The translations under genes and the position numbers were made by a program. This document shows positions 8,286 to 62,107 of a DNA stretch of 64,000 bases, one piece after another. This DNA is from Perkinsus olseni (lineage: Eukaryota > Perkinsozoa > Perkinsida > Perkinsidae): contig JABANP010000154.1 in NCBI GenBank assembly GCA_013115135.1, positions 1 through 64,000 of the forward strand, written 5' to 3'. The first letter of the stretch is position 1, and each line of letters begins with the position of its first letter. The notes under the pieces are model-generated. The model was not told the DNA's origin. It saw only the letters and a list, made by a program, of their open reading frames with translations, and made no database searches.

Positions 8286-9569
8286 TTACCATTGGTTTCG
8301 TTCGACATCCCTTCCGAAGATCCCCAACCCCACCGAGACGAAGATCATCCCAACCATCGAGGAGGGTGCCAATGGATACCCGAAAAGGATCTGTAAGACT
8401 GCCGATCTTGCCGAAGTTGTGCTTCCCTCGACTCACAGAACTGGCTAGAGCCGTAGCCCACAGCTCCACTGCAGCTGCGATGGACTTAATAATAGACCCG
8501 AGGGAACGAAGGACGAACCCCGTTAATATACCTACCACGGAACCCGGCTGCCACGACTCCAAACAATTCCAAGGGGAGCGCAATTTTCTCATCCTTGTTC
8601 CGCCACATCAAATCCGAGTCACAACAACACCCTACCGATCCACAGGGCCCAGCAGACGCAAAAAGTCGGCCTTCCCCGCAGCTCCCCGTGGACGTACCAG
8701 TGAACGCAGCATTAATAACAGCGGCCGCAGTCCAGGGCCTCGTAAGAGGCTGAATTAACGCATCCCACTGCGTCTGATGATGAGGCGCCACAAAACAGCT
8801 CAGAATCAACAGGAGGAGACTGTCAGCGTACATGAACACATTTTGTATCTACAACAGCTAGAGGTGTCAGAAAAAAAACCACCAGCAACTCACATGAGGA
8901 TTCACCCCTCGATTTCTCAGAAGCTTCTCACTGAAGATTCCAGCAGCGCTCGACAAAAACGCTTGTAAAAACACCGTCATGTAATCCACGACCGAGTGAC
9001 CGCCAGAGGAGCCGCCTGAAAAATCGCCATCACCCTCGACTGCACCGAAGAGCCTCACCGAATAGGAGAGCGTAGAGGGCCGGGCTCTCCCTGAGCATCG
9101 AGCCTAGCATTATAAAAATAAGTCCAACCCATTGAAGGAGGGACGTCTTCTTAGCGGACCCTAGTAGTTGATAGAGAATGGCTGTTATCACTATGCGGCT
9201 CTGCAGCAGTACCTGCATGACGGGAAATGTCGCGCGCCACGAAATTTGCCCGCCTTACAAAATAGGTACCCGGATCGAACCTTTTCAAGCCGTGGTAAGT
9301 AAGGACGTTATAAATGCAGTACAGCGCTGCTGGTATCATGTTTCTGACACCTCTAGCTGTCACGATCAACAGCAGCGGCAACGGGCGTACAGTAAAAGCA
9401 GCTTTGGATGGCCCTTCAATTGTGCCACGAGGCCCGCCAAAGTTCCTCCCGTGTCCATACAGAAGAGGGCGCTGGCTAACACCAACTTGGCCGCCTCCTG
9501 CCACATCACGGCGACCTTGGAGTCGACCACCACGCCCTCCTCCTCATCAACGACCGATGCCCAGTGAAC
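8286..9569 (-). CDS. SLC35A-type nucleotide-sugar transporter (N-terminal exon missing)
   Basis: Golgi or ER membrane antiporter family that exchanges a cytosolic nucleotide sugar for the nucleoside monophosphate. Seven consecutive exons join in frame: 9391-9569, 9259-9343, 9059-9212, 8894-9015, 8698-8848, 8437-8531, 8286-8390, ending TAA. Family features in order: VMWQEAAKLVLA (helix 2), NMIPAALYCIYNVL (helix 3-4), VLLQSRIVITAILYQLL and LQWVGLIFIMLG (helices 5-6), AGIFSEKLLRN, NAAFTGILTGFVLRSLGSII, and a C-terminal ILFGYP helix pair. Introns are 42-47 nt apart from one of 166 nt. An acceptor lies just before 9569, so the first exon with helix 1 must lie upstream (9.57-10.2 kb); I could not identify it. 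Substrate cannot be told from sequence. Confidence 0.85.
8849..8893 (-). repeat. Family B introner-like intron, inverted orientation
   Basis: A 45-nt intron of the transporter (GTGAGT...TTGTAG). It contains the 18-nt sequence AGCTAGAGGTGTCAGAAA at 8856-8873 on the plus strand, that is, antisense to the host gene. In this orientation the complement supplies the pyrimidine tract before the acceptor. The same sequence lies in the sense direction in the introns at 9344, 33352 and 34090. Confidence 0.7.
9213..9258 (-). repeat. Family A introner-like intron in transporter
   Basis: A 46-nt GT-AG intron between TYF and VLLQ codons. It contains AAATTTCGTGGCGCGCG, the family A core shared with introns at 12478, 14033, 15372 and 34399. 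Confidence 0.7.
9344..9390 (-). repeat. Family B introner-like intron, sense orientation
   Basis: A 47-nt intron (GTACGC...GTCAG) that ends within the family B core: AGCTAGAGGTGTCAG forms the acceptor. Frame across the junction (KLLL-NMIPAALY) matches the SLC35A family. Confidence 0.68.
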
Positions 9570-20204: not shown

Positions 20205-20504
20205 GTTGACAAAACGATCTTTGTGTTTGGCATGTCGTTGTTATTGCCTAGAGTGTCGATCTCTCAGCCGTTATCCACCCTCACCGGTTCCACCGCGCGG
20301 TATTGCCTGCTCTGTTCCCAGCCTTAGCCAGTGCCCGCGACTTCGGATGTTCGGATGTGATGACTTCCGCCTACCCACCCGAACTTAGTGGCCCCTTGGG
20401 ATGGGCTGCTGATCTCCGACCGACTCTCGGCACGACACGCCATTCACTCAGATCTCGCCCCCGCATGGGTTACAGGTGCTCGCTACACACCCGGCTTGTT
20501 TAAT
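20205..20504 (+). repeat. R repeat, copy 1 (with diverged tail)
   Basis: A 300-bp sequence that starts GTTGACAAAACGATCTTTG and ends CACACCCGGCTT plus TAAT. Eight full or partial copies occur in the window and the core is nearly identical by eye. A tail of about 150 bp (to about 20680) is shared with other copies at lower similarity, for example TGGTATGACATGCACACATA at 20557. Confidence 0.85.
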
Positions 20505-24192: not shown

Positions 24193-24492
24193 GTTGACAA
24201 AACGATCTTTGTGTTTGGCATGTCGTTGTTATTGCCTAGAGTGTCGGTCTCTCAGCCGTTATCCACCCTCACCGGTTCCACCGCGCGGTATTGCCTGCTC
24301 TGTTCCCAGCCTTAGCCAGTGCCCGCGACTTCGGATGTTCGGATGTGATGACTTCCGCCTACCCACCCGAACTTAGTGGCCCCTTGGGATGGGCTGCTGA
24401 TCTCCGACCGACTCTCGGCACGACACGCCATTCACTCAGATCTCGCCCCCGCATGGGTTACAGGTGCTCGCTACACACCCGGCTTGTTTAAT
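24193..24492 (+). repeat. R repeat, copy 2 (first of the array)
   Basis: Full 300-bp core, same orientation as copy 1. Upstream it is preceded by CCCGACA as in copy 1, whereas the following three copies are preceded by GATCCCCGTA. Confidence 0.85.
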
Positions 24493-25574: not shown

Positions 25575-25874
25575 GTTGACAAAACGATCTTTGTGTTTGG
25601 CATGTCGTTGTTATTGCCTAGAGTGTCGATCTCTCAGCCGTTATCCACCCTCACCGGTTCCACCGCGCGGTATTGCCTGCTCTGTTCCCAGCCTTAGCCA
25701 GTGCCCGCGACTTCGGATGTTCGGATGTGATGACTTCCGCCGACCCACCCGAACTTAGTGGCCCCTTGGGATGGGCTGCTGATCTCCGACCGACTCTCGG
25801 CACGACACGCCATTCACTCAGATCTCGCCCCCGCATGGGTTACAGGTGCTCGCTACACACCCGGCTTGTTTAAT
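25575..25874 (+). repeat. R repeat, copy 3
   Basis: Full core; one visible change (CCGACC for CCTACC at 25739-25744). Confidence 0.85.
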
Positions 25875-26988: not shown

Positions 26989-27288
26989 GTTGACATAACG
27001 ATCTTTGTGTTTGGCATGTCGTTGTTATTGCCTAGGGTGTCGATCTCTCAGCCGTTATCCACCCTCACCGGTTCCACCGCGCGGTATTGCCTGCTCTGTT
27101 CCCAGCCTTAGCCAGTGCCCGCGACTTCGGATGTTCGGATGTGATGACTTCCGCCTACCCACCCGAACTTAGTGGCCCCTTGGGATGGGCTGCTGATCTC
27201 CGACCGACTCTCGGCACGACGCGCCATTCACTCAGATCTCGCCCCCGCATGGGTTACAGGTGCTCGCTGCACACCCGGCTTGTTTAAT
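26989..27288 (+). repeat. R repeat, copy 4
   Basis: Full core with a few single-base changes (TTGACATAAC at the start, CCTAGGGTG). Confidence 0.85.
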
Positions 27289-28370: not shown

Positions 28371-28670
28371 GTTGACAAAACGATCTTTGTGTTTGGCATG
28401 TCGTTGTTATTGCCTAGAGTGCCGATCTCTCAGCCGTTATCCACCCTCACCGGTTCCACCGCGCGGTATTGCCTGCTCTGTTCCCAGCCTTAGCCAGTGC
28501 CCGCGACTTCGGATGTTCGGATGTGATGACTTCCGCCTACCCACCCGAGCTTAGTGGCCCCTTGGGATGGGCTGCTGATCTCCGACCGACTCTCGGCACG
28601 ACACGCCATTCACTCAGATCTCGCCCCCGCCTGGGTTACAGGTGCTCGCTACACACCCGGCTTACTTAAT
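28371..28670 (+). repeat. R repeat, copy 5 (end of array)
   Basis: Full core. Its tail (to about 28800) resembles that of copy 1 rather than the array interior, so the array ends here. Confidence 0.85.
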
Positions 28671-31737: not shown

Positions 31738-34700
31738 CTACTGTCTCGTCCTGTCTCTTCTGTCCAATTGATGGTGCCATTCTCCAGTCGACGTGCTGAA
31801 GGTGTATGCTCCTAGTAGCTTCCAACCGTTCTCAGCCACCCATAGAATAGATCCTGAAGGGGCTCCATCAGATGGGGGCACGCCCGGCCTCTCGCGGCCA
31901 GGCAAGAGCAAACTCCACTGGCTAGTTCGAATACTATCAACGCCTGTGCGACTGTGATTAGCCGAGTCCAATAAGCGTACTATTATCGGTTACAAGAGCT
32001 CAACCAGAACACCTTCAGTACTCCTATGAAGATACCCGTACTCACCTGCAAGGACGTCCAGCTCCTCCTGGGTCATAGAGTAATGAACACCAACCCGCAT
32101 GAAGCCTGGACGGATCACTTCACAACCACTCGTCCCTGAGAAAGAGGATACTGCTGTGAGTGGTAGAATGCGCAAGGAAATGAACGATAGCGATAACGAC
32201 CGCCATCCCCTCGTCGATGGAGATATCATTGAAAGGGTCTTTCGCTTCAATCCCATGAAGTACCGTATCAACGCGTTGGCGATAAATGAATCCTCTGTTG
32301 AAGCCGGTCTTACTCAGAGAGTTCTCGAAGCGCACGGCCATGTCGTTATCAATTCCCAGCAGACTATGTGCATAGGGGCCAGCACAAGCACAGCCACCTC
32401 TACCCTGGACACCGAAGACATCATTCAATACCGCACCAACGAAGTTGTAATGGAGATATCTGACAACATAACCGAGAGTATGTCGACCTGCAAAGATACG
32501 CTGATAATCTGCGTGACCACCGGCGAGTCCTACTTCCTATTGAAGCCCAGCCCATTTCTTCTCAAGGTGACGGCACAAAAAGATACTAATTCATCGAAGC
32601 TTCAACGTAAGATACTCCAAGAGCAGAGCTTTGGCGCTTCCACTAGGACATGCCGATAGACTTACAGTCCCCTTTTGGTGGCTGGATCTTCATTATAGAG
32701 TATATTGAACGACACGATGCCCGCGCACTGACTCCGATCCTACATAGATAGCGAGAGAGTATCTTTTTACTTGTTTTACACCACCACCACCAACCTGAGG
32801 TCCTAGTATGTGAATCTTGCTGCATTTGGAGAGCCTTTCGACCAGCTGAGTCGCCATCCGTCTCTCTGTTTTAGCGATCATATCATGATCCAGCATGCTG
32901 TGAAGGTGGTATACCGCACCCGCCCGAATGCAACCCAGAATATCAGGGGTACCTATAAGAGTTACGAAAGGTGTGGTATGAACTCCGGCATATAATTCCC
33001 TACCAGCCTCTTCTCTTTCCTCATGATTTTGAATGTAACTGTGAGCAACTGGACTGACGTAAAACACAACCCCGCCGCCGCAGACCGCAGGGACGGCGTT
33101 GGTCTGATGCTTTTTCTTGCAAAGCAACAGTCCACTACTGCCAGGGCCTCCGAGTAACTTATGAGGCGACACAAACGCGAAGTCGATGTACCCTTGAGGA
33201 TGGGATACAGGGTTCATATCAACCTGACGATACGAAAATACGTAAACATGAATCGCTTCGCTCCGCCTACTTTGATTTTGCTACTGGCTGCAGCGAGGTC
33301 CCAACAGGCAATACCGTTATAGGAATGGACCAAGGTAGACAAGGTTGGTATCTGGCAGTATCGTTTTCTGACACCTCTAGCTGATAAATAATGATCCCGC
33401 CTACATCAAGCATGGCCCCTGTAACATTGCTGCACGCCGATAATACCACTACCGGCACGGCAGCCGTATCAGTAGCCGTTGATTCATTGAAGTGTACAAT
33501 CTGCAACGTAAGAAAAAATTAAACATGCAGCGGTTCGCTCCGCTAAGACTACCTCCTTCAATACCTCCTCCAGGGCGTTGACATCGGCCGTCCCTGTGGT
33601 ATGGTCGAGGGGGAGCTCCTGAGGGGCGCCGATGATCCTCGGTGGTATTCGAACGGCCGACTCAAGTTGGTGATGAAATTCCAGTGCGACATCCATCAGC
33701 AAAGCGGGCCACTCGAACTCTCAATTCTATCGGTGGTTGAACGAGTGGGTCCATTAATTTTGTTGGGCTCTGTGAAACAATACGCCGGTGCGTCTTGTGG
33801 CATAGTTGATGTAATCCCCACTAGTAGTACCACTAACTCCGTCTCAAAGACGTTGTCCACGCTGCTGTCCACCGTGCCCGACAACTTGAAGTGTGATCCG
33901 GGAACTGAGAGTGAAAAATACGGCAAGGCTAGTGTCGCTGCTTTCATGAGATGAGCCAGCTTGGATACCGCTGCGCAATCCTACCATAGTACCCGAAGGA
34001 GAGCCTCCTTTGACTATGGGAAAGTGTGAGAGTATCTCACGGAAGGGCAATGCTGAACTATGGTGATTAACCGGATCCAACACCAATACCTACACAGAGA
34101 TAGTACGGACAGAAAACACTATCATCATTCGACGCACGAAGACCACGGAAGGTTTACTGACGATTAGAAACTACAGTCGGTGTCGTCATATTTTCTGACA
34201 CCTCTAGCTACCAGAATCAATGATGTACCATCCCCCTGGAAACCCTGTACACTCACCGCTCGTCTCCTCGTCCTCTTCTTCTGTGTAGTTTTGTAGTTGC
34301 CCAACTTCTCGGCATGCATGACAGTTTTAACGTGAGATCGATACACGGACTCATTCTTCAGACGAACGTCGCATAATGTACACTCGCAACCACCCCATCT
34401 AGCAGCAGACAACACCGTCACTGCGCCACGAAATTAGAGGCTGCCACACTACCGGTCCTCTCTGAAGAACTTCCTTTCATCGTCTTGTTGGTCCCCCTGT
34501 TGATCGAAGCCCCTACTCTTCCAGAGCATCTCCAAGAACTTATTCGAAGCACCAGTAGCACCGGCACCGCAGAATATAACTAAAAACATGAAGGACGGTC
34601 GTCTTAAAATTGCCGCCGTACTCAGCAGGTGTCCCAAGGCTAAGTTCGGGAGCAGCCCTGGGTCCTAATGGCTTCGTAACTCCGAACTACGACCTAGCGG

Positions 34701-35970: not shown

Positions 35971-36464
35971 AAGCCGGGTGTGTAGCGAGCACCTGTAACC
36001 CATGCGGGGGCGAGATCTGAGTGAATGGCTGATCTCCGACCGAGAGTCGGTCGGAGATCAGCAGCCCATCCCAAGGGGTCACTAAGTTCGGGTGGGTAGG
36101 CGGAAGTCATCACATCCGAACATCCGAAGTCGCGGGCACTGGCTAAGGCTGGGAACAGAGCAGGCAATACCGCGCGGTGGAACCGGTGAGGGTGGATAAC
36201 GGCTGAGAGATCGACACTCTAGGCAATAACAACGACACGCCAAACACAATCGGAGATCAGCAGCCCATCCCAAGGGGTCACTAAGTTCGGGTGGGTAGGC
36301 GGAAGTCATCACATCCGAACATCCGAAGTCGCGGGCACTGGCTAAGGCTGGGAACAGAGCAGGCAATACCGCGCGGTGGAACCGGTGAGGGTGGATAACG
36401 GCTGAGAGATCGACACTCTAGGCAATAACAACGACACGCCAAACACAAAGATCGTTTTGTCAAC
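35971..36464 (-). repeat. R repeat, copy 6: two truncated copies in tandem, inverted
   Basis: The first part (35971-36249) covers most of R but has a foreign segment at about 36024-36040; the second (36250-36464) restarts at ATCGGAGATCAGCAGCCCAT and runs to GTTTTGTCAAC. Upstream flank CCGACAGTTGAC matches copies 1 and 2. See the finding on the palindrome at 36028-36062. Confidence 0.85.
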
Positions 36465-40592: not shown

Positions 40593-40891
40593 GTTGACAA
40601 AAACGATCTTTATGTTTGGCATGTCGTTGTTATTGCCTAGAGTGTCGGTCTCTCAGCCGTTATCCACCCTCACCGGTTCCACCGCGCGGTATTGCCTGCT
40701 CTGTTCCCAGCCTTAGCCAGTGCCCGCGACTTCGGATGTTCGGATGTGATGACTTCCGCCTACCCACCCGAACTTAGTGGCCCCTTGGGATGGGCTGCTG
40801 ATCTCCGACCGACTCTCGGCACGACACGCCATTCACTCAGATCTCGCCCCCGCATGGGTTACAGGTGCTCGCTACACACCCGGCTTACTAG
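40593..40891 (+). repeat. R repeat, copy 7
   Basis: Full core in plus orientation. Its tail (to about 41050) is related to that of copies 1 and 6 but clearly diverged (TTACAGTGCCATTTGGTACA), whereas the core is almost unchanged. Confidence 0.85.
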
Positions 40892-43437: not shown

Positions 43438-43730
43438 GAGCCGGGTGTGTAGCGAGCACCTGTAACCCATGCGGGGGCGAGATCTGTGTGAATGGCGTGT
43501 CGTGCCGAGAGTCGGTCGGAGATCAGCAGCCCATCCCAAGGGGCCACTAAGTTCGGGTGGGTAGGCGGAAGTCATCACATCCGAACATCCGAAGTCGCGG
43601 GCACTGGCTAAGGCTGGGAACAGAGCAGGCAATACCGCGCGGTGGAACCGGTGAGGGTGGATAACGGCTGAGAGATCGACACTCTAGGCAATAACAACGA
43701 CATGCCAAACACAAAGATCGTTTTTGTCAT
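43438..43730 (-). repeat. R repeat, copy 8 (inverted)
   Basis: Nearly complete core in minus orientation. It ends at GTTTTTGTCAT and is followed within 200 bp by the start codon of the coiled-coil gene, so it may overlap that gene's promoter region. Confidence 0.85.
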
Positions 43731-59400: not shown

Positions 59401-62107
59401 GATGGCTTCCTGACGATTTGTGATGCTCTTCAGCAGCCTGAAGTTCCCTCACAGTCTGATGCCGTTATTATACGCCCAAGCGAGCGCCTTGTCGAATTTA
59501 AGTCTGTTGGTCTGCTGTTGCTTCCGAATGTACTCACAAGCCTGCAGGAGCAACACACCTCACAAGGGACGAAACCGCCCGGCGTCTCACAGCCAACCTC
59601 TCCCGAGACGGGAACATGTAGGGATAACGCTGCCGGTTGGCATCGGCGAACCTGATGAGCCTGAAGGCTGGCCACGGCCGCCATCTTCAACTAACCATGG
59701 GATCCAAGTATTGAAGCTGATCTTCTCCGTACGAGCGTTCGATGCATCATCCCAACAGCAGACTCTTATCTGACCGAAACCGAATGCGCTTTCGAAGTAG
59801 GCCGGTGAGCTCACCCCGCAGACCCTCCAAGCGTCGGCCATGGACGGGTTCTTAGCCAGAGCAACAGCGATATCTGATCAGCAGGACCGTGTGTGGCACA
59901 GTCAGCAGACCCCCACCTCTCCGTGCTTTGGTCGTCCTCGCTCCGTTCAATGATACCACCGTCCGAGAAGGACAGTTGCTTCAACAAGTCGCTTTCTGGC
60001 GGCATCTGCGAGGCCCGGTGTCAGCACGCGTGCAGCATCCTTCATTCGCTCACGAAGAAGCTCATGTGGGCTCCCACAGTCGGATGGTCCATCGCCCAGT
60101 GCCCCTTGGTCCTGCAAAACTGAGTTCCTCCATCTCCCCTAACGACAGCAGGCCCACCGTGCAGGCAAGGCGGCGCCCGTGATCGGATGCTTCTGCATGG
60201 AGGTCTTATCGAAGATATTAGGGAAGGTCAAGTCGGGCATGTCGGCTCCTGGAAGGGAGGTGGCATGAGAGCTAGCCTATGGACCGAGTGAGCTCACTCC
60301 TCCAGGCGAAGTTCATTGCGAGAAATCTGGTAGGTAGGGCCGCGGGGTATCGGGTGTCTTTGGGGGTGCAGTACTTGAAGGCTGCTACTTGTTCTGCAGC
60401 GGGCATCTGATCATACAGTGAGGCTTAGGGACACTTCGGATGGGCGGATTTGGGTTGTTTTTGGTGTTGGGACGATGCTAAGTGATCCCAGTCAGTGGTG
60501 TAATCAGCTATTATAGCGGCCCTATGCTGTCCACTAGCATCGCCCGATTAGTTCAGCTGGATAGAATGTCTGCCTACGGAGCAGATGGTCGTAGGTTCGA
60601 ATCCTGCATCGGGTAACTATTTATCCCATTCAATTCGCTCCCAACTTGACCTCGTCCATATCCCCGTGAATGAATAGTGTTTTGTCATCAGGCTCTCCGA
60701 AAGCCTCGACATACTTCTCCAGCAGATACCCCCGGGTGAATGTCTCCAATGCGTATCTACACTCGAGGTATCCTTCTCTAGTGGACTAAGCAGCCAGCGT
60801 GGTGATGGTACCACCGTCTACCTGTCTTCCTTTCCTCCATTAACCCTCCTGAACCTCGCCTCGACAGCATCGTCCAGAACACCGTACACGATCTTGTCTC
60901 GGAAGGCTTCAAACCTGCTGTTGGTGAGGCTGCCTTTGTCGAGCACCACCACCCGGCCACCTCCGAGACTCGAGGGCAGCTCCCAACAGCAGCGACTTCG
61001 ACCACTTCTTGAACGCTCTCGTCGACTCGACGATAACGAAGACCTGCGCGCTGACCATTCCGTGCATCCTCAATGCAGCAGACGCACATCGACAACAGAG
61101 TGGAGCTCATGCAGTCGGATCTCCAGGATGTCAAGTTCGTACGCAAAGGGGACGAGGTCGACGATGCGGACTGGCGAGGGCCGCGTGCCAGTCATATACC
61201 TGGGGGGACATAAAGGCGGTAAAATCAAAGAGGAGCGGTACGGATTCTCTGACAGTCCCATTCGAGCTTCCGCGATTGGGGTCTGTCCAGAACTGTCGCC
61301 TCCGCTGCAGGCTCCCGGGATAGGAGGCCTTGGAGGTGTGTAACGTACCGCCGCACCCACACCTGGGAGGGGACGTGCAGGAGGGAGCCTCCGCGTCAGC
61401 TCACTTCGTTGTTCGGATGATGGCGATCGACCAGGGCTAGCCAGTCGAACTCAACACCAGCAATTTCTTCCATTCGGCCGTGGTCTGGGTTGATCTCCCA
61501 CTCCCCTGTCATCGGTACGGCCTTTCGACATGATCGCTCGTTGCGTCATCTCACCCAGCTCATTCAGGTCGACTTGCGCAGCGTCTATCCACATGAGATC
61601 GCCCCTGTCGAGTATGCTCTCCGCTGTCACTACGGGAGCCTTGGTGCCTTAGAGACGAGCCCGGCAAAATCAGCGCCACGTAGCTCCGGCCAACCTCTCT
61701 TCGCACAGTCAGCCTTCTCGCCTTTGAGCTCCTCAATCGTCCCCTTAGCCTCCTCTAATTCCCGTCCCCTGGCGTCCAATGCCTCCTTCAACTCGCTCTA
61801 AGTCGATCGCCTATCACCACAAACCCGACCTCGGTGCTCCCCACTACCGCCTTATCCTCCGCTTCCTTCCCGTCTGCCTTCGATGCAGCGGAGCGAAGTT
61901 TCTTCAGCACTAGCTCCAGCCGAGAGAGTACCTATTCATACCAAGGGCCGTCCGGGTCGGCACTACGACAGCTTCCCTCACGTCGTTGCCGTTAAGAACC
62001 GCTGCCCCCTTCAGGAACGCTCCTTCGTCATTGAACGACGAAGCCCCTCTTATCGGTACCGAGAGAACGTACAGAGCCGGGAGGAGTACACACACCAGCA
62101 CTATCAT
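59401..62107 (-). CDS. Unrecognised long gene, tandem copy B (many exons)
   Basis: Starts at 62107 with a signal helix (MIVLVCVLLPALYVLSVPIR), then a coiled coil (ELKEALDARGRELEEAKGTI near 61.75 kb). Blocks shared with copy A: GVEFDWLALVDRHHPN (61.45 kb), RYMTGTRPSPVRIVDLVPFA (61.17 kb), EKYVEAFGEPDDKTLFIHGD (60.7 kb), PAAEQVAAFKYCTPKD (60.39 kb), WAMDHPTVGAHMSFFVSE (60.08 kb), DLLKQLSFSDGG (59.97 kb), NPSMADAWRVCGV (59.83 kb) and SFNTWIPW (59.7 kb). The intron at 60407-60650 (244 nt) contains a tRNA-Arg gene, whereas the same intron in copy A is 45 nt. Function unknown. Confidence 0.6.
60542..60614 (+). tRNA. tRNA-Arg (anticodon ACG)
   Basis: A 73-nt cloverleaf: acceptor GCCCGAT pairs with ATCGGGT (first pair G-U), D arm TTAGTTCAGCTGGATAGAA, anticodon arm TCTGC-CTACGGA-GCAGA with ACG, and T arm GTAGG-TTCGAAT-CCTGC. 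No CCA is encoded and no intron is present. It lies antisense inside an intron of the minus-strand gene copy B. Confidence 0.93.

What the first reader, a model, noticed from the sequence alone, without database searches (positions are those of the whole stretch)
8849..9390. Family B: one sequence forms introns in both orientations
AGCTAGAGGTGTCAGAAA lies sense in introns 9344-9390, 33352-33404 and 34090-34211, but antisense in 8849-8893. Two opposite cases sit in adjacent introns of one gene. In sense it offers a CAG acceptor; in antisense its complement TTTCTGACACCTCTAG gives a pyrimidine tract and TAG. A sequence that carries splice signals on both strands would let a mobile element become an intron whichever way it lands.
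Basis: partly seen in the sequence, partly recalled or inferred. Interest (0 to 1): 0.88.

Follow-up and report, generated by a model that had tools for sequence, protein, structure and literature searches.

The report
Short repeated word inside introns
A shellfish parasite carries the same 18-letter DNA word in over two hundred places, often inside its tiny introns and on either strand; the pattern is real, but how the word spread and what it does are not yet known.

Summary
The genome is inferred to be Perkinsus olseni. The 18-mer occurs exactly 226 times in 61.5 Mb (119 forward, 107 reverse; backwards control 0). I examined 87 copies with the word masked: 53 fall in predicted introns (31 antisense, 22 sense); control positions are 25.9% intronic. 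Thirteen such introns (8 antisense, 5 sense) are confirmed by a Pfam domain reading across the splice, including window 8849-8893, 9344-9390 and 33352-33404. The fourth more likely starts at 34256 than 34211. The two opposite copies are not in neighbouring introns: 9213-9258, carrying another repeated word, lies between.

The shared unit is about 18 bp with sharp borders; no inverted repeat, no convincing target-site duplication, no fixed place in the intron and no empty site were found. None of 32 antisense introns ends inside the word; 7 of 24 sense introns are called with its CAG as acceptor. Three related introns lack the word. Best reading: an introner-like micro-repeat, copied in either orientation and tolerated or weakly conserved in ordinary introns. 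A functional intronic element remains a serious rival.

The parts
8856..8873 (+). 18-mer copy 1, antisense to its gene
   Evidence: exact match
8849..8893 (-). 45-nt GT-AG intron of the SLC35A-like gene holding copy 1 in antisense; acceptor GTTGTAG lies 7 nt beyond the word
   Evidence: Pfam Nuc_sug_transp spans the junction; P. olseni proteins P0109-P0112 agree; letters
9213..9258 (-). 46-nt intron between the two 18-mer introns; carries another repeated word, AATTTCGTGGCGC (family A), in sense
   Evidence: coordinates; word; P0109-P0112 read TYF/VLLQ across it
9341..9358 (-). 18-mer copy 2, sense; its CAG is the acceptor and its last AAA is the start of the exon
9344..9390 (-). 47-nt intron of the SLC35A-like gene ending inside copy 2
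33365..33382 (-). 18-mer copy 3, sense
33352..33404 (-). 53-nt intron of the class V aminotransferase gene; the word is internal
   Evidence: Aminotran_5 spans the junction; P0116 agrees
34192..34209 (-). 18-mer copy 4, sense
34090..34256 (-). probable 167-nt intron holding copy 4 (reader: 34090-34211)
   Evidence: comparison with paralogue P0117; donor position; donor inferred

Best explanation
The word is an introner-like micro-repeat of Perkinsus olseni: a unit of about 18 bp that was copied to hundreds of places, in either orientation, and that is found above all inside ordinary GT-AG introns. Both strands are compatible with splicing, so both orientations survive there. Antisense gives CTGAC plus pyrimidines; sense gives GTGTCAG, which sometimes serves as the acceptor. 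The surrounding intron provides the donor and usually the acceptor. After arrival the core is kept at least as well as its neighbourhood. Shown: the copies, their two orientations, the intron residence, the sharp borders, and that introns of related genes do without the word. Inferred: that copying produced the family, and that splice compatibility is why both orientations are kept. Unknown: the copying machinery, and whether the word arrived with each intron or later.
For: 226 exact copies, control 0, both strands. A second subtype ending TAA has 25 exact copies; all 25 were fetched and 15 are called intronic, 7 sense and 8 antisense, as expected of two copied lineages. 53 of 87 examined exact copies lie in introns with the word masked, 31 antisense and 22 sense. 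Thirteen introns (8 antisense, 5 sense) are spanned by a Pfam domain above its cut-off. Outside the word only weak base preferences. Among the 100 places listed, 8 neighbouring pairs are under 2 kb apart, where about 0.7 is expected from density (my arithmetic; some may be tandem duplicates). Related introns without the word: L135, L137 and probably L142.
Against: No inverted repeat and no convincing target-site duplication; no empty site in 24 aligned paralogue pairs. Word-bearing short introns are only 4 nt longer than others (median 52 against 48, p=0.005), where insertion into a finished intron predicts about 18. Of 87 copies, 17 fall outside predicted genes and 17 in predicted exons, though at least two such calls (L010, L041) look wrong. 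No relative's DNA was held, so no gain could be seen.
Confidence: 0.42

Rival explanations
1. The word is a functional cis-element kept by selection in old introns, acting either on DNA (a long binding site, orientation-free) or on RNA, without recent mobility.
For: 24 flank-found paralogue pairs: the word has 15 changes in 432 positions against 55 in 576 in the 12+12 nt around it, Fisher p=1.4e-4. L010 and L041, about 80% identical, keep it 18/18, but both were picked as exact. Two window genes hold two copies each. A neighbouring word of another family (A, intron 9213-9258) fits the read-through peptide NFVACD of a relative about 50% identical in protein with 1 mismatch; 5 of 3000 shuffled peptides did as well.
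Against: The query copies were chosen as exact, so the fair neutral expectation is about half the flank rate: 20.6 changes against 15 seen, P=0.13. An exact 18-mer at 226 sites is hard to reach without copying. Position in the intron does not differ from uniform. Ordinary short introns show no CTGAC branch-site consensus. The word is rarer in predicted intergenic DNA than control positions (13 of 65 against 38.8%), where a DNA-level site should be free to lie. Three related introns do without it.
Confidence: 0.27
2. One reading: a mobile element that becomes an intron whichever way it lands, bringing splice signals on both strands (a true introner).
For: Both orientations in verified introns; identical dispersed copies; acceptor inside the word in window 9344-9390 and called so in 7 of 24 sense introns; opposite-orientation introner insertion is a recognised possibility in PMC9860276 (passages read).
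Against: The shared unit is 18 nt of about 50. No antisense intron of 32 ends inside the word and no exact copy has a donor called inside it. No inverted repeat, no convincing TSD. Introns at the same place without the word.
Confidence: 0.2
3. Passive filler: short pieces pasted into existing non-coding DNA by break repair, seen in introns only because coding sequence excludes them.
For: No convincing TSD, sharp borders, placement not different from uniform; word families unrelated to each other share the habit.
Against: Enriched in short introns (28 of 65 copies against 9.4% of control positions) while predicted intergenic DNA is poor in it (13 of 65 against 38.8%); one fixed 18-mer with two subtypes is not random filler.
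Confidence: 0.08

Closest known systems
Introner elements (Micromonas, Aureococcus, Amoebophrya and others; PMC9860276, PMC7789003)
   Same: Many dispersed copies in spliceosomal introns; insertion in opposite orientation is allowed for. Some introner families also lack TSDs and TIRs: 49 of 130 families showed TSDs and 72 of 177 TIRs (passages of PMC9860276).
   Different: Introner families there were judged by similarity of the intron ends; here only 18 nt are shared, at no fixed place, and the splice sites usually lie outside.
MITEs (miniature inverted-repeat transposons)
   Same: Short, non-coding, dispersed, both orientations.
   Different: No terminal inverted repeats and no convincing target-site duplication found.
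Long protein-binding motifs such as RE1/NRSF or CTCF sites (recalled, not from a call)
   Same: About 20 bp, orientation-free, dispersed, weak flank preferences.
   Different: Such motifs are degenerate (recalled); here exact copies far outnumber central variants (226 exact of 269), and intergenic DNA is not favoured.

Membership tests
Introner element | Copies similar over most of the intron, ends included | tested here: not met
   Information content drops to near zero outside the 18-mer, apart from weak preferences (65 copies, 91 copies)
Introner element | Recent intron gain: the site lacks the intron in close relatives | not testable with these tools
   No other Perkinsus DNA held. Within the genome, 24 of 24 aligned paralogue pairs keep the word or a changed form in place, 14 of 24 unchanged; L135, L137 and probably L142 have the intron without the word
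Introner element | Splice sites carried by the element or its target-site duplication | tested here: not met
   Of 56 exact copies called intronic, 49 have the whole word inside the intron (32 antisense, 17 sense) and 7 sense ones have the acceptor inside the word; so met for a minority of sense copies only
Introner element | Insertion in both orientations | tested here: met
   31 antisense, 22 sense of 53 intronic copies, binomial p=0.27
MITE / DNA transposon | Terminal inverted repeats | tested here: not met
   No excess complementarity of left and right flanks
MITE / DNA transposon | Target-site duplication | tested here: not met
   Flanking direct repeats of 4, 5 and 6 nt: 14, 3, 1 against 12.5, 3.4, 1.0 expected; 3 nt 63 against 49.6, a mild excess; an offset scan gave only small counts such as 3 against 0.35 among hundreds of combinations; no in-register repeat excess at splice junctions
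Branch-point element | Fixed distance to the 3' splice site and general use in introns | tested here: inconclusive
   CTGAC occurs 15 times in 297 ordinary short introns; antisense words lie 7-29 nt from the intron end; placement does not differ from uniform, though sense alone is borderline (p=0.054)
Known structured RNA | Rfam match over the copies | tested here: not met
   9 Rfam matches in the window at gathering threshold, none over a copy

The most novel reading that the evidence does not exclude
P. olseni introns host several unrelated families of 12-18 bp words, each copied without target duplication into short introns, some families on either strand and one mostly in sense. This would be a new class of intron-resident micro-element, much shorter than an introner, that can be gained or lost while the intron stays, and that is then kept by selection.
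Probability: 0.3. Interest if true: 0.85.

Novelty: new variant of a known kind. Interest (0 to 1): 0.6.

Why it matters
How introns gain sequence, and how new introns arise, is a long-standing question. An exact word at hundreds of places, largely introns, on both strands, with sharp borders and no transposon marks, does not fit the usual introner picture. It is testable with other Perkinsus genomes and RNA-seq. If the word is selected, it points to an unrecognised intron element in alveolates; if it is copied, to a very short mobile unit.

Tried and rejected
Target-site duplication: tested over offsets and lengths on 65 copies and 91 copies; nothing beyond a mild 3-nt excess. Flanking stem: one copy (L029) has a perfect 7-nt inverted repeat around the word, but the set shows no excess. 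Branch site: attractive because antisense reads TTTCTGAC, but ordinary introns have no such consensus and the position varies. Whole-intron copies: rejected, flanks unrelated. Insertion into finished introns: lengths differ by 4 nt, not 18. Selection test by paralogues: looked strong (Fisher p=1.4e-4) until corrected for having picked exact queries (P=0.13). Subtype TAA near the donor (6 of 7 antisense introns, two of them paralogues) against AAA (p=0.009, post hoc): weakened by L050 and L146, 99% identical paralogues that differ A/T at the same place. The C32 tandem array was checked for Rfam, tRNA and ORFs; nothing explained it. HMM errors known to me by later comparison: L010 and L041 (called non-intronic), and wrong borders for L050, L065 and window 8849-8893 (called 120 nt). 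A join script for L065 failed; the 49-nt reading of L065 is by eye and is not counted. I had also counted antisense ends in a set that could not contain introns ending inside the word; one search replaces that count.

Full report
Setting. The window is contig C62 of an unnamed 61.48 Mb eukaryotic assembly of 968 contigs. A subtilisin open frame in the window finds P. olseni proteins; the one labelled FOZ60_001090 lies on a contig of 130819 bases, the length of C18, and P. olseni protein P0112 lies on one of 37139 bases, the length of C461. I infer that the assembly is Perkinsus olseni. No relative's DNA was held with it, and I did not scan the viral or prokaryote collections.

The word. AGCTAGAGGTGTCAGAAA has four exact copies in the window and none with 1-3 mismatches. 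The whole genome has 226 exact copies, 119 forward and 107 reverse, with a backwards control of 0. Up to 3 mismatches gives 785 against 64 for the control, but a tandem array on C32 inflates this. With the six central positions free there are 269 matches, control 7, so central variants are few. One subtype, ending TAA, has 25 copies.

Borders. In 65 exact copies and 91 distinct copies only weak preferences lie outside the word, chiefly R at -2 (70 of 91), Y at -1 (66 of 91) and R at +1 (82 of 91). No inverted repeat was found; direct repeats of 4-6 nt are at expectation and 3-nt repeats mildly above it (63 against 49.6). The unit copied or conserved is about 18-21 bp.

Where it lies. I trained a simple gene-finding HMM on the fetched DNA, words included, and decoded with the word masked. 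Of 87 exact copies examined (87 of 226; loci taken in contig order plus chosen clusters, not at random), 53 lie in predicted introns (31 antisense, 22 sense), 17 outside predicted genes and 17 in predicted exons. For the first 65 copies the figure is 40 introns against an intron share of 26% of bases (binomial p=1.3e-9); control positions 200-1300 bases away were intronic in 25.9% of 1296 cases. Introns of up to 130 nt hold 28 of 65 copies against 9.4% of control positions; predicted intergenic DNA holds 13 of 65 against 38.8%. The HMM makes errors: L010 and L041 look intronic from their alignment but were called otherwise, and three introns had wrong borders.

Verification. One search printed 56 word-bearing intron models. 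I chose by eye 18 gene models with 19 such introns (one search printed 20 further candidates, of which 16 were used) and gave them to Pfam in 20 sequences, one of which was not a genuine translation and one a part of the SLC35A gene again. A domain above its curated cut-off spans 13 of the 19 junctions: antisense L002 (TFIIB), L008 (TPP enzyme), L018 (ribosomal protein L26), L030 (hydrolase), L035 (NTF2), L053 (DnaJ), L056 (kinase, only 5 residues past the junction) and window 8849-8893; sense L059 (Snf7), L063 (bestrophin), L079 (Arf), window 9344-9390 and 33352-33404. L076 (WD40, DCAF13-like by my reading) is spanned only by matches below cut-off. L011, L016, L043, L054 and L074 were not confirmed. 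Annotated P. olseni proteins read across both SLC35A junctions and one reads across the class V junction; whether those annotations rest on transcripts is unknown.

Splice sites. Without masking, 56 of the 87 exact copies overlap a called intron: 32 antisense and 17 sense introns hold the whole word, and 7 sense introns have their acceptor inside it (L001, L040, L062, L065, L075, L076, window 9344-9390); no antisense intron ends inside it and no donor lies inside it. Of the seven, the window case is verified, L076 probable, L065 wrong by my reading and L062 doubtful because its tandem paralogue L063 uses an acceptor further on. For the TAA subtype 2 acceptors and 2 donors are called inside the word among 18 overlapping introns of 25 copies. 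In 35 introns of 38-62 nt holding the whole word (both subtypes) the median length is 52 against 48 for 308 others (p=0.005), and the word's place does not differ significantly from uniform (KS p=0.12; sense alone 0.054). Ordinary short introns show no CTGAC consensus.

Paralogues. Flank searches with 63 of 65 copies gave 26 full-length paralogue places and four short partial ones. I aligned 24; C365 (100% identical) and C107 (99%) were left out, and C107, fetched later as L146, carries the TAA form. In 24 of 24 the word or a changed form of it is in place, 14 of 24 without change; L123 and L134 have 4 and 3 changes. Changes: 15 of 432 in the word, 55 of 576 in the adjacent 12+12 nt (Fisher p=1.4e-4). 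Because the query copies were chosen as exact, the neutral expectation is about half the flank rate (20.6), and 15 is not significantly lower (P=0.13). More distant relatives have an intron at the same place without the word: the hydrolase L135 (49 nt) and the bestrophin L137 (43 nt), and probably the remote bestrophin L142 (47 nt).

Other words. The same held DNA has other short words in introns: AATTTCGTGGCGC (19 places; 11 intronic, 10 sense), GCTTCGCTCCGC (17 places; 9 intronic, 5 sense and 4 antisense), TCTTCGCTGTGCGCA (6 rows, all intronic; two rows are one place in overlapping loci, so 5 places, 2 sense and 3 antisense), and GTATCTTT (20 sense and 6 antisense introns). The first of these lies in the middle intron (9213-9258) of the same SLC35A-like gene. 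At that site the predicted protein P0114 of an unnamed source (50% identical over 32% of the query) appears to read through the intron; its NFVACD fits the word with one mismatch, and 5 of 3000 shuffled peptides did as well. At the 9344-9390 site the same protein reads GV before the exon, which fits GGTGTC; this is one weak site (0.6% of random dipeptides).

Literature. Search listings: introner with Perkinsus gave one paper, on Amoebophrya; Perkinsus chesapeaki, olseni and genome assembly gave 2; introner elements, intron gain, transposable elements and dinoflagellate gave 1; introners with intron gain gave 13; Perkinsus with introns and splice sites gave 13; Perkinsus olseni with genome and intron gave 15; introner with both orientations gave one review. 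Of PMC9860276 and PMC7789003 I read passages; the others I saw as listings only. The main text of PMC9860276 does not contain the word Perkinsus. Within these searches I found no report of this word or of introners in Perkinsus.

Judgement. A real, unusual, orientation-free intronic repeat. I do not file it as an introner, because features tested here (whole-intron similarity, splice sites carried by the element) are not met or met only for a minority of sense copies; but it behaves in part like one. Copying is inferred from the number of identical copies and from the two subtypes; selection is suggested but not proven.

Noticed in passing
window 20216-20495, 24204-24483, 25586-25865, 26998-27279, 28382-28661, 35973-36250, 40605-40884, 43440-43719: Eight signal recognition particle RNA matches.
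   Followed up: no
window 60542-60615: A tRNA match.
   Followed up: no
window 9213-9258, word at 9234-9246: Family A word AATTTCGTGGCGC in the intron between the two 18-mer introns; sense in 10 of 11 predicted introns and apparently kept in a relative.
   Followed up: partly
held loci L001-L060 and window: Words GTATCTTT, GCTTCGCTCCGC, TCTTCGCTGTGCGCA and the tRNA B-box-like (recalled label) GGTTCGATCC recur in introns in both orientations.
   Followed up: partly
L101, L102 (G000:C32:93500-95100 and 97700-98700): Tandem array of about 194-nt units carrying AGCTAGAGGTGTCAGAGA, one base off the word; no Rfam match near its gathering score and no tRNA.
   Followed up: partly
L061 (G000:C195:35250-35950): Three exact copies within 211 bases, same orientation, the first and third in what look like diverged direct repeats.
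   Followed up: no
L144-L161: Subtype ending TAA: in 6 of 7 antisense introns it sits 6-11 nt after the donor, unlike the main type (post hoc).
   Followed up: partly
places listed: Copies cluster: 8 neighbouring pairs under 2 kb among the 100 listed places, five of them 485-898 bases apart on C42, C62 (two), C105 and C139.
   Followed up: partly
P0109-P0112: The SLC35A-like protein is named ER degradation-enhancing alpha-mannosidase-like protein 3 in public records, although the precomputed Pfam domain is a nucleotide-sugar transporter.
   Followed up: no
Many loci have a second copy at 87-100% identity in the assembly, perhaps uncollapsed haplotypes or recent duplication.
   Followed up: no
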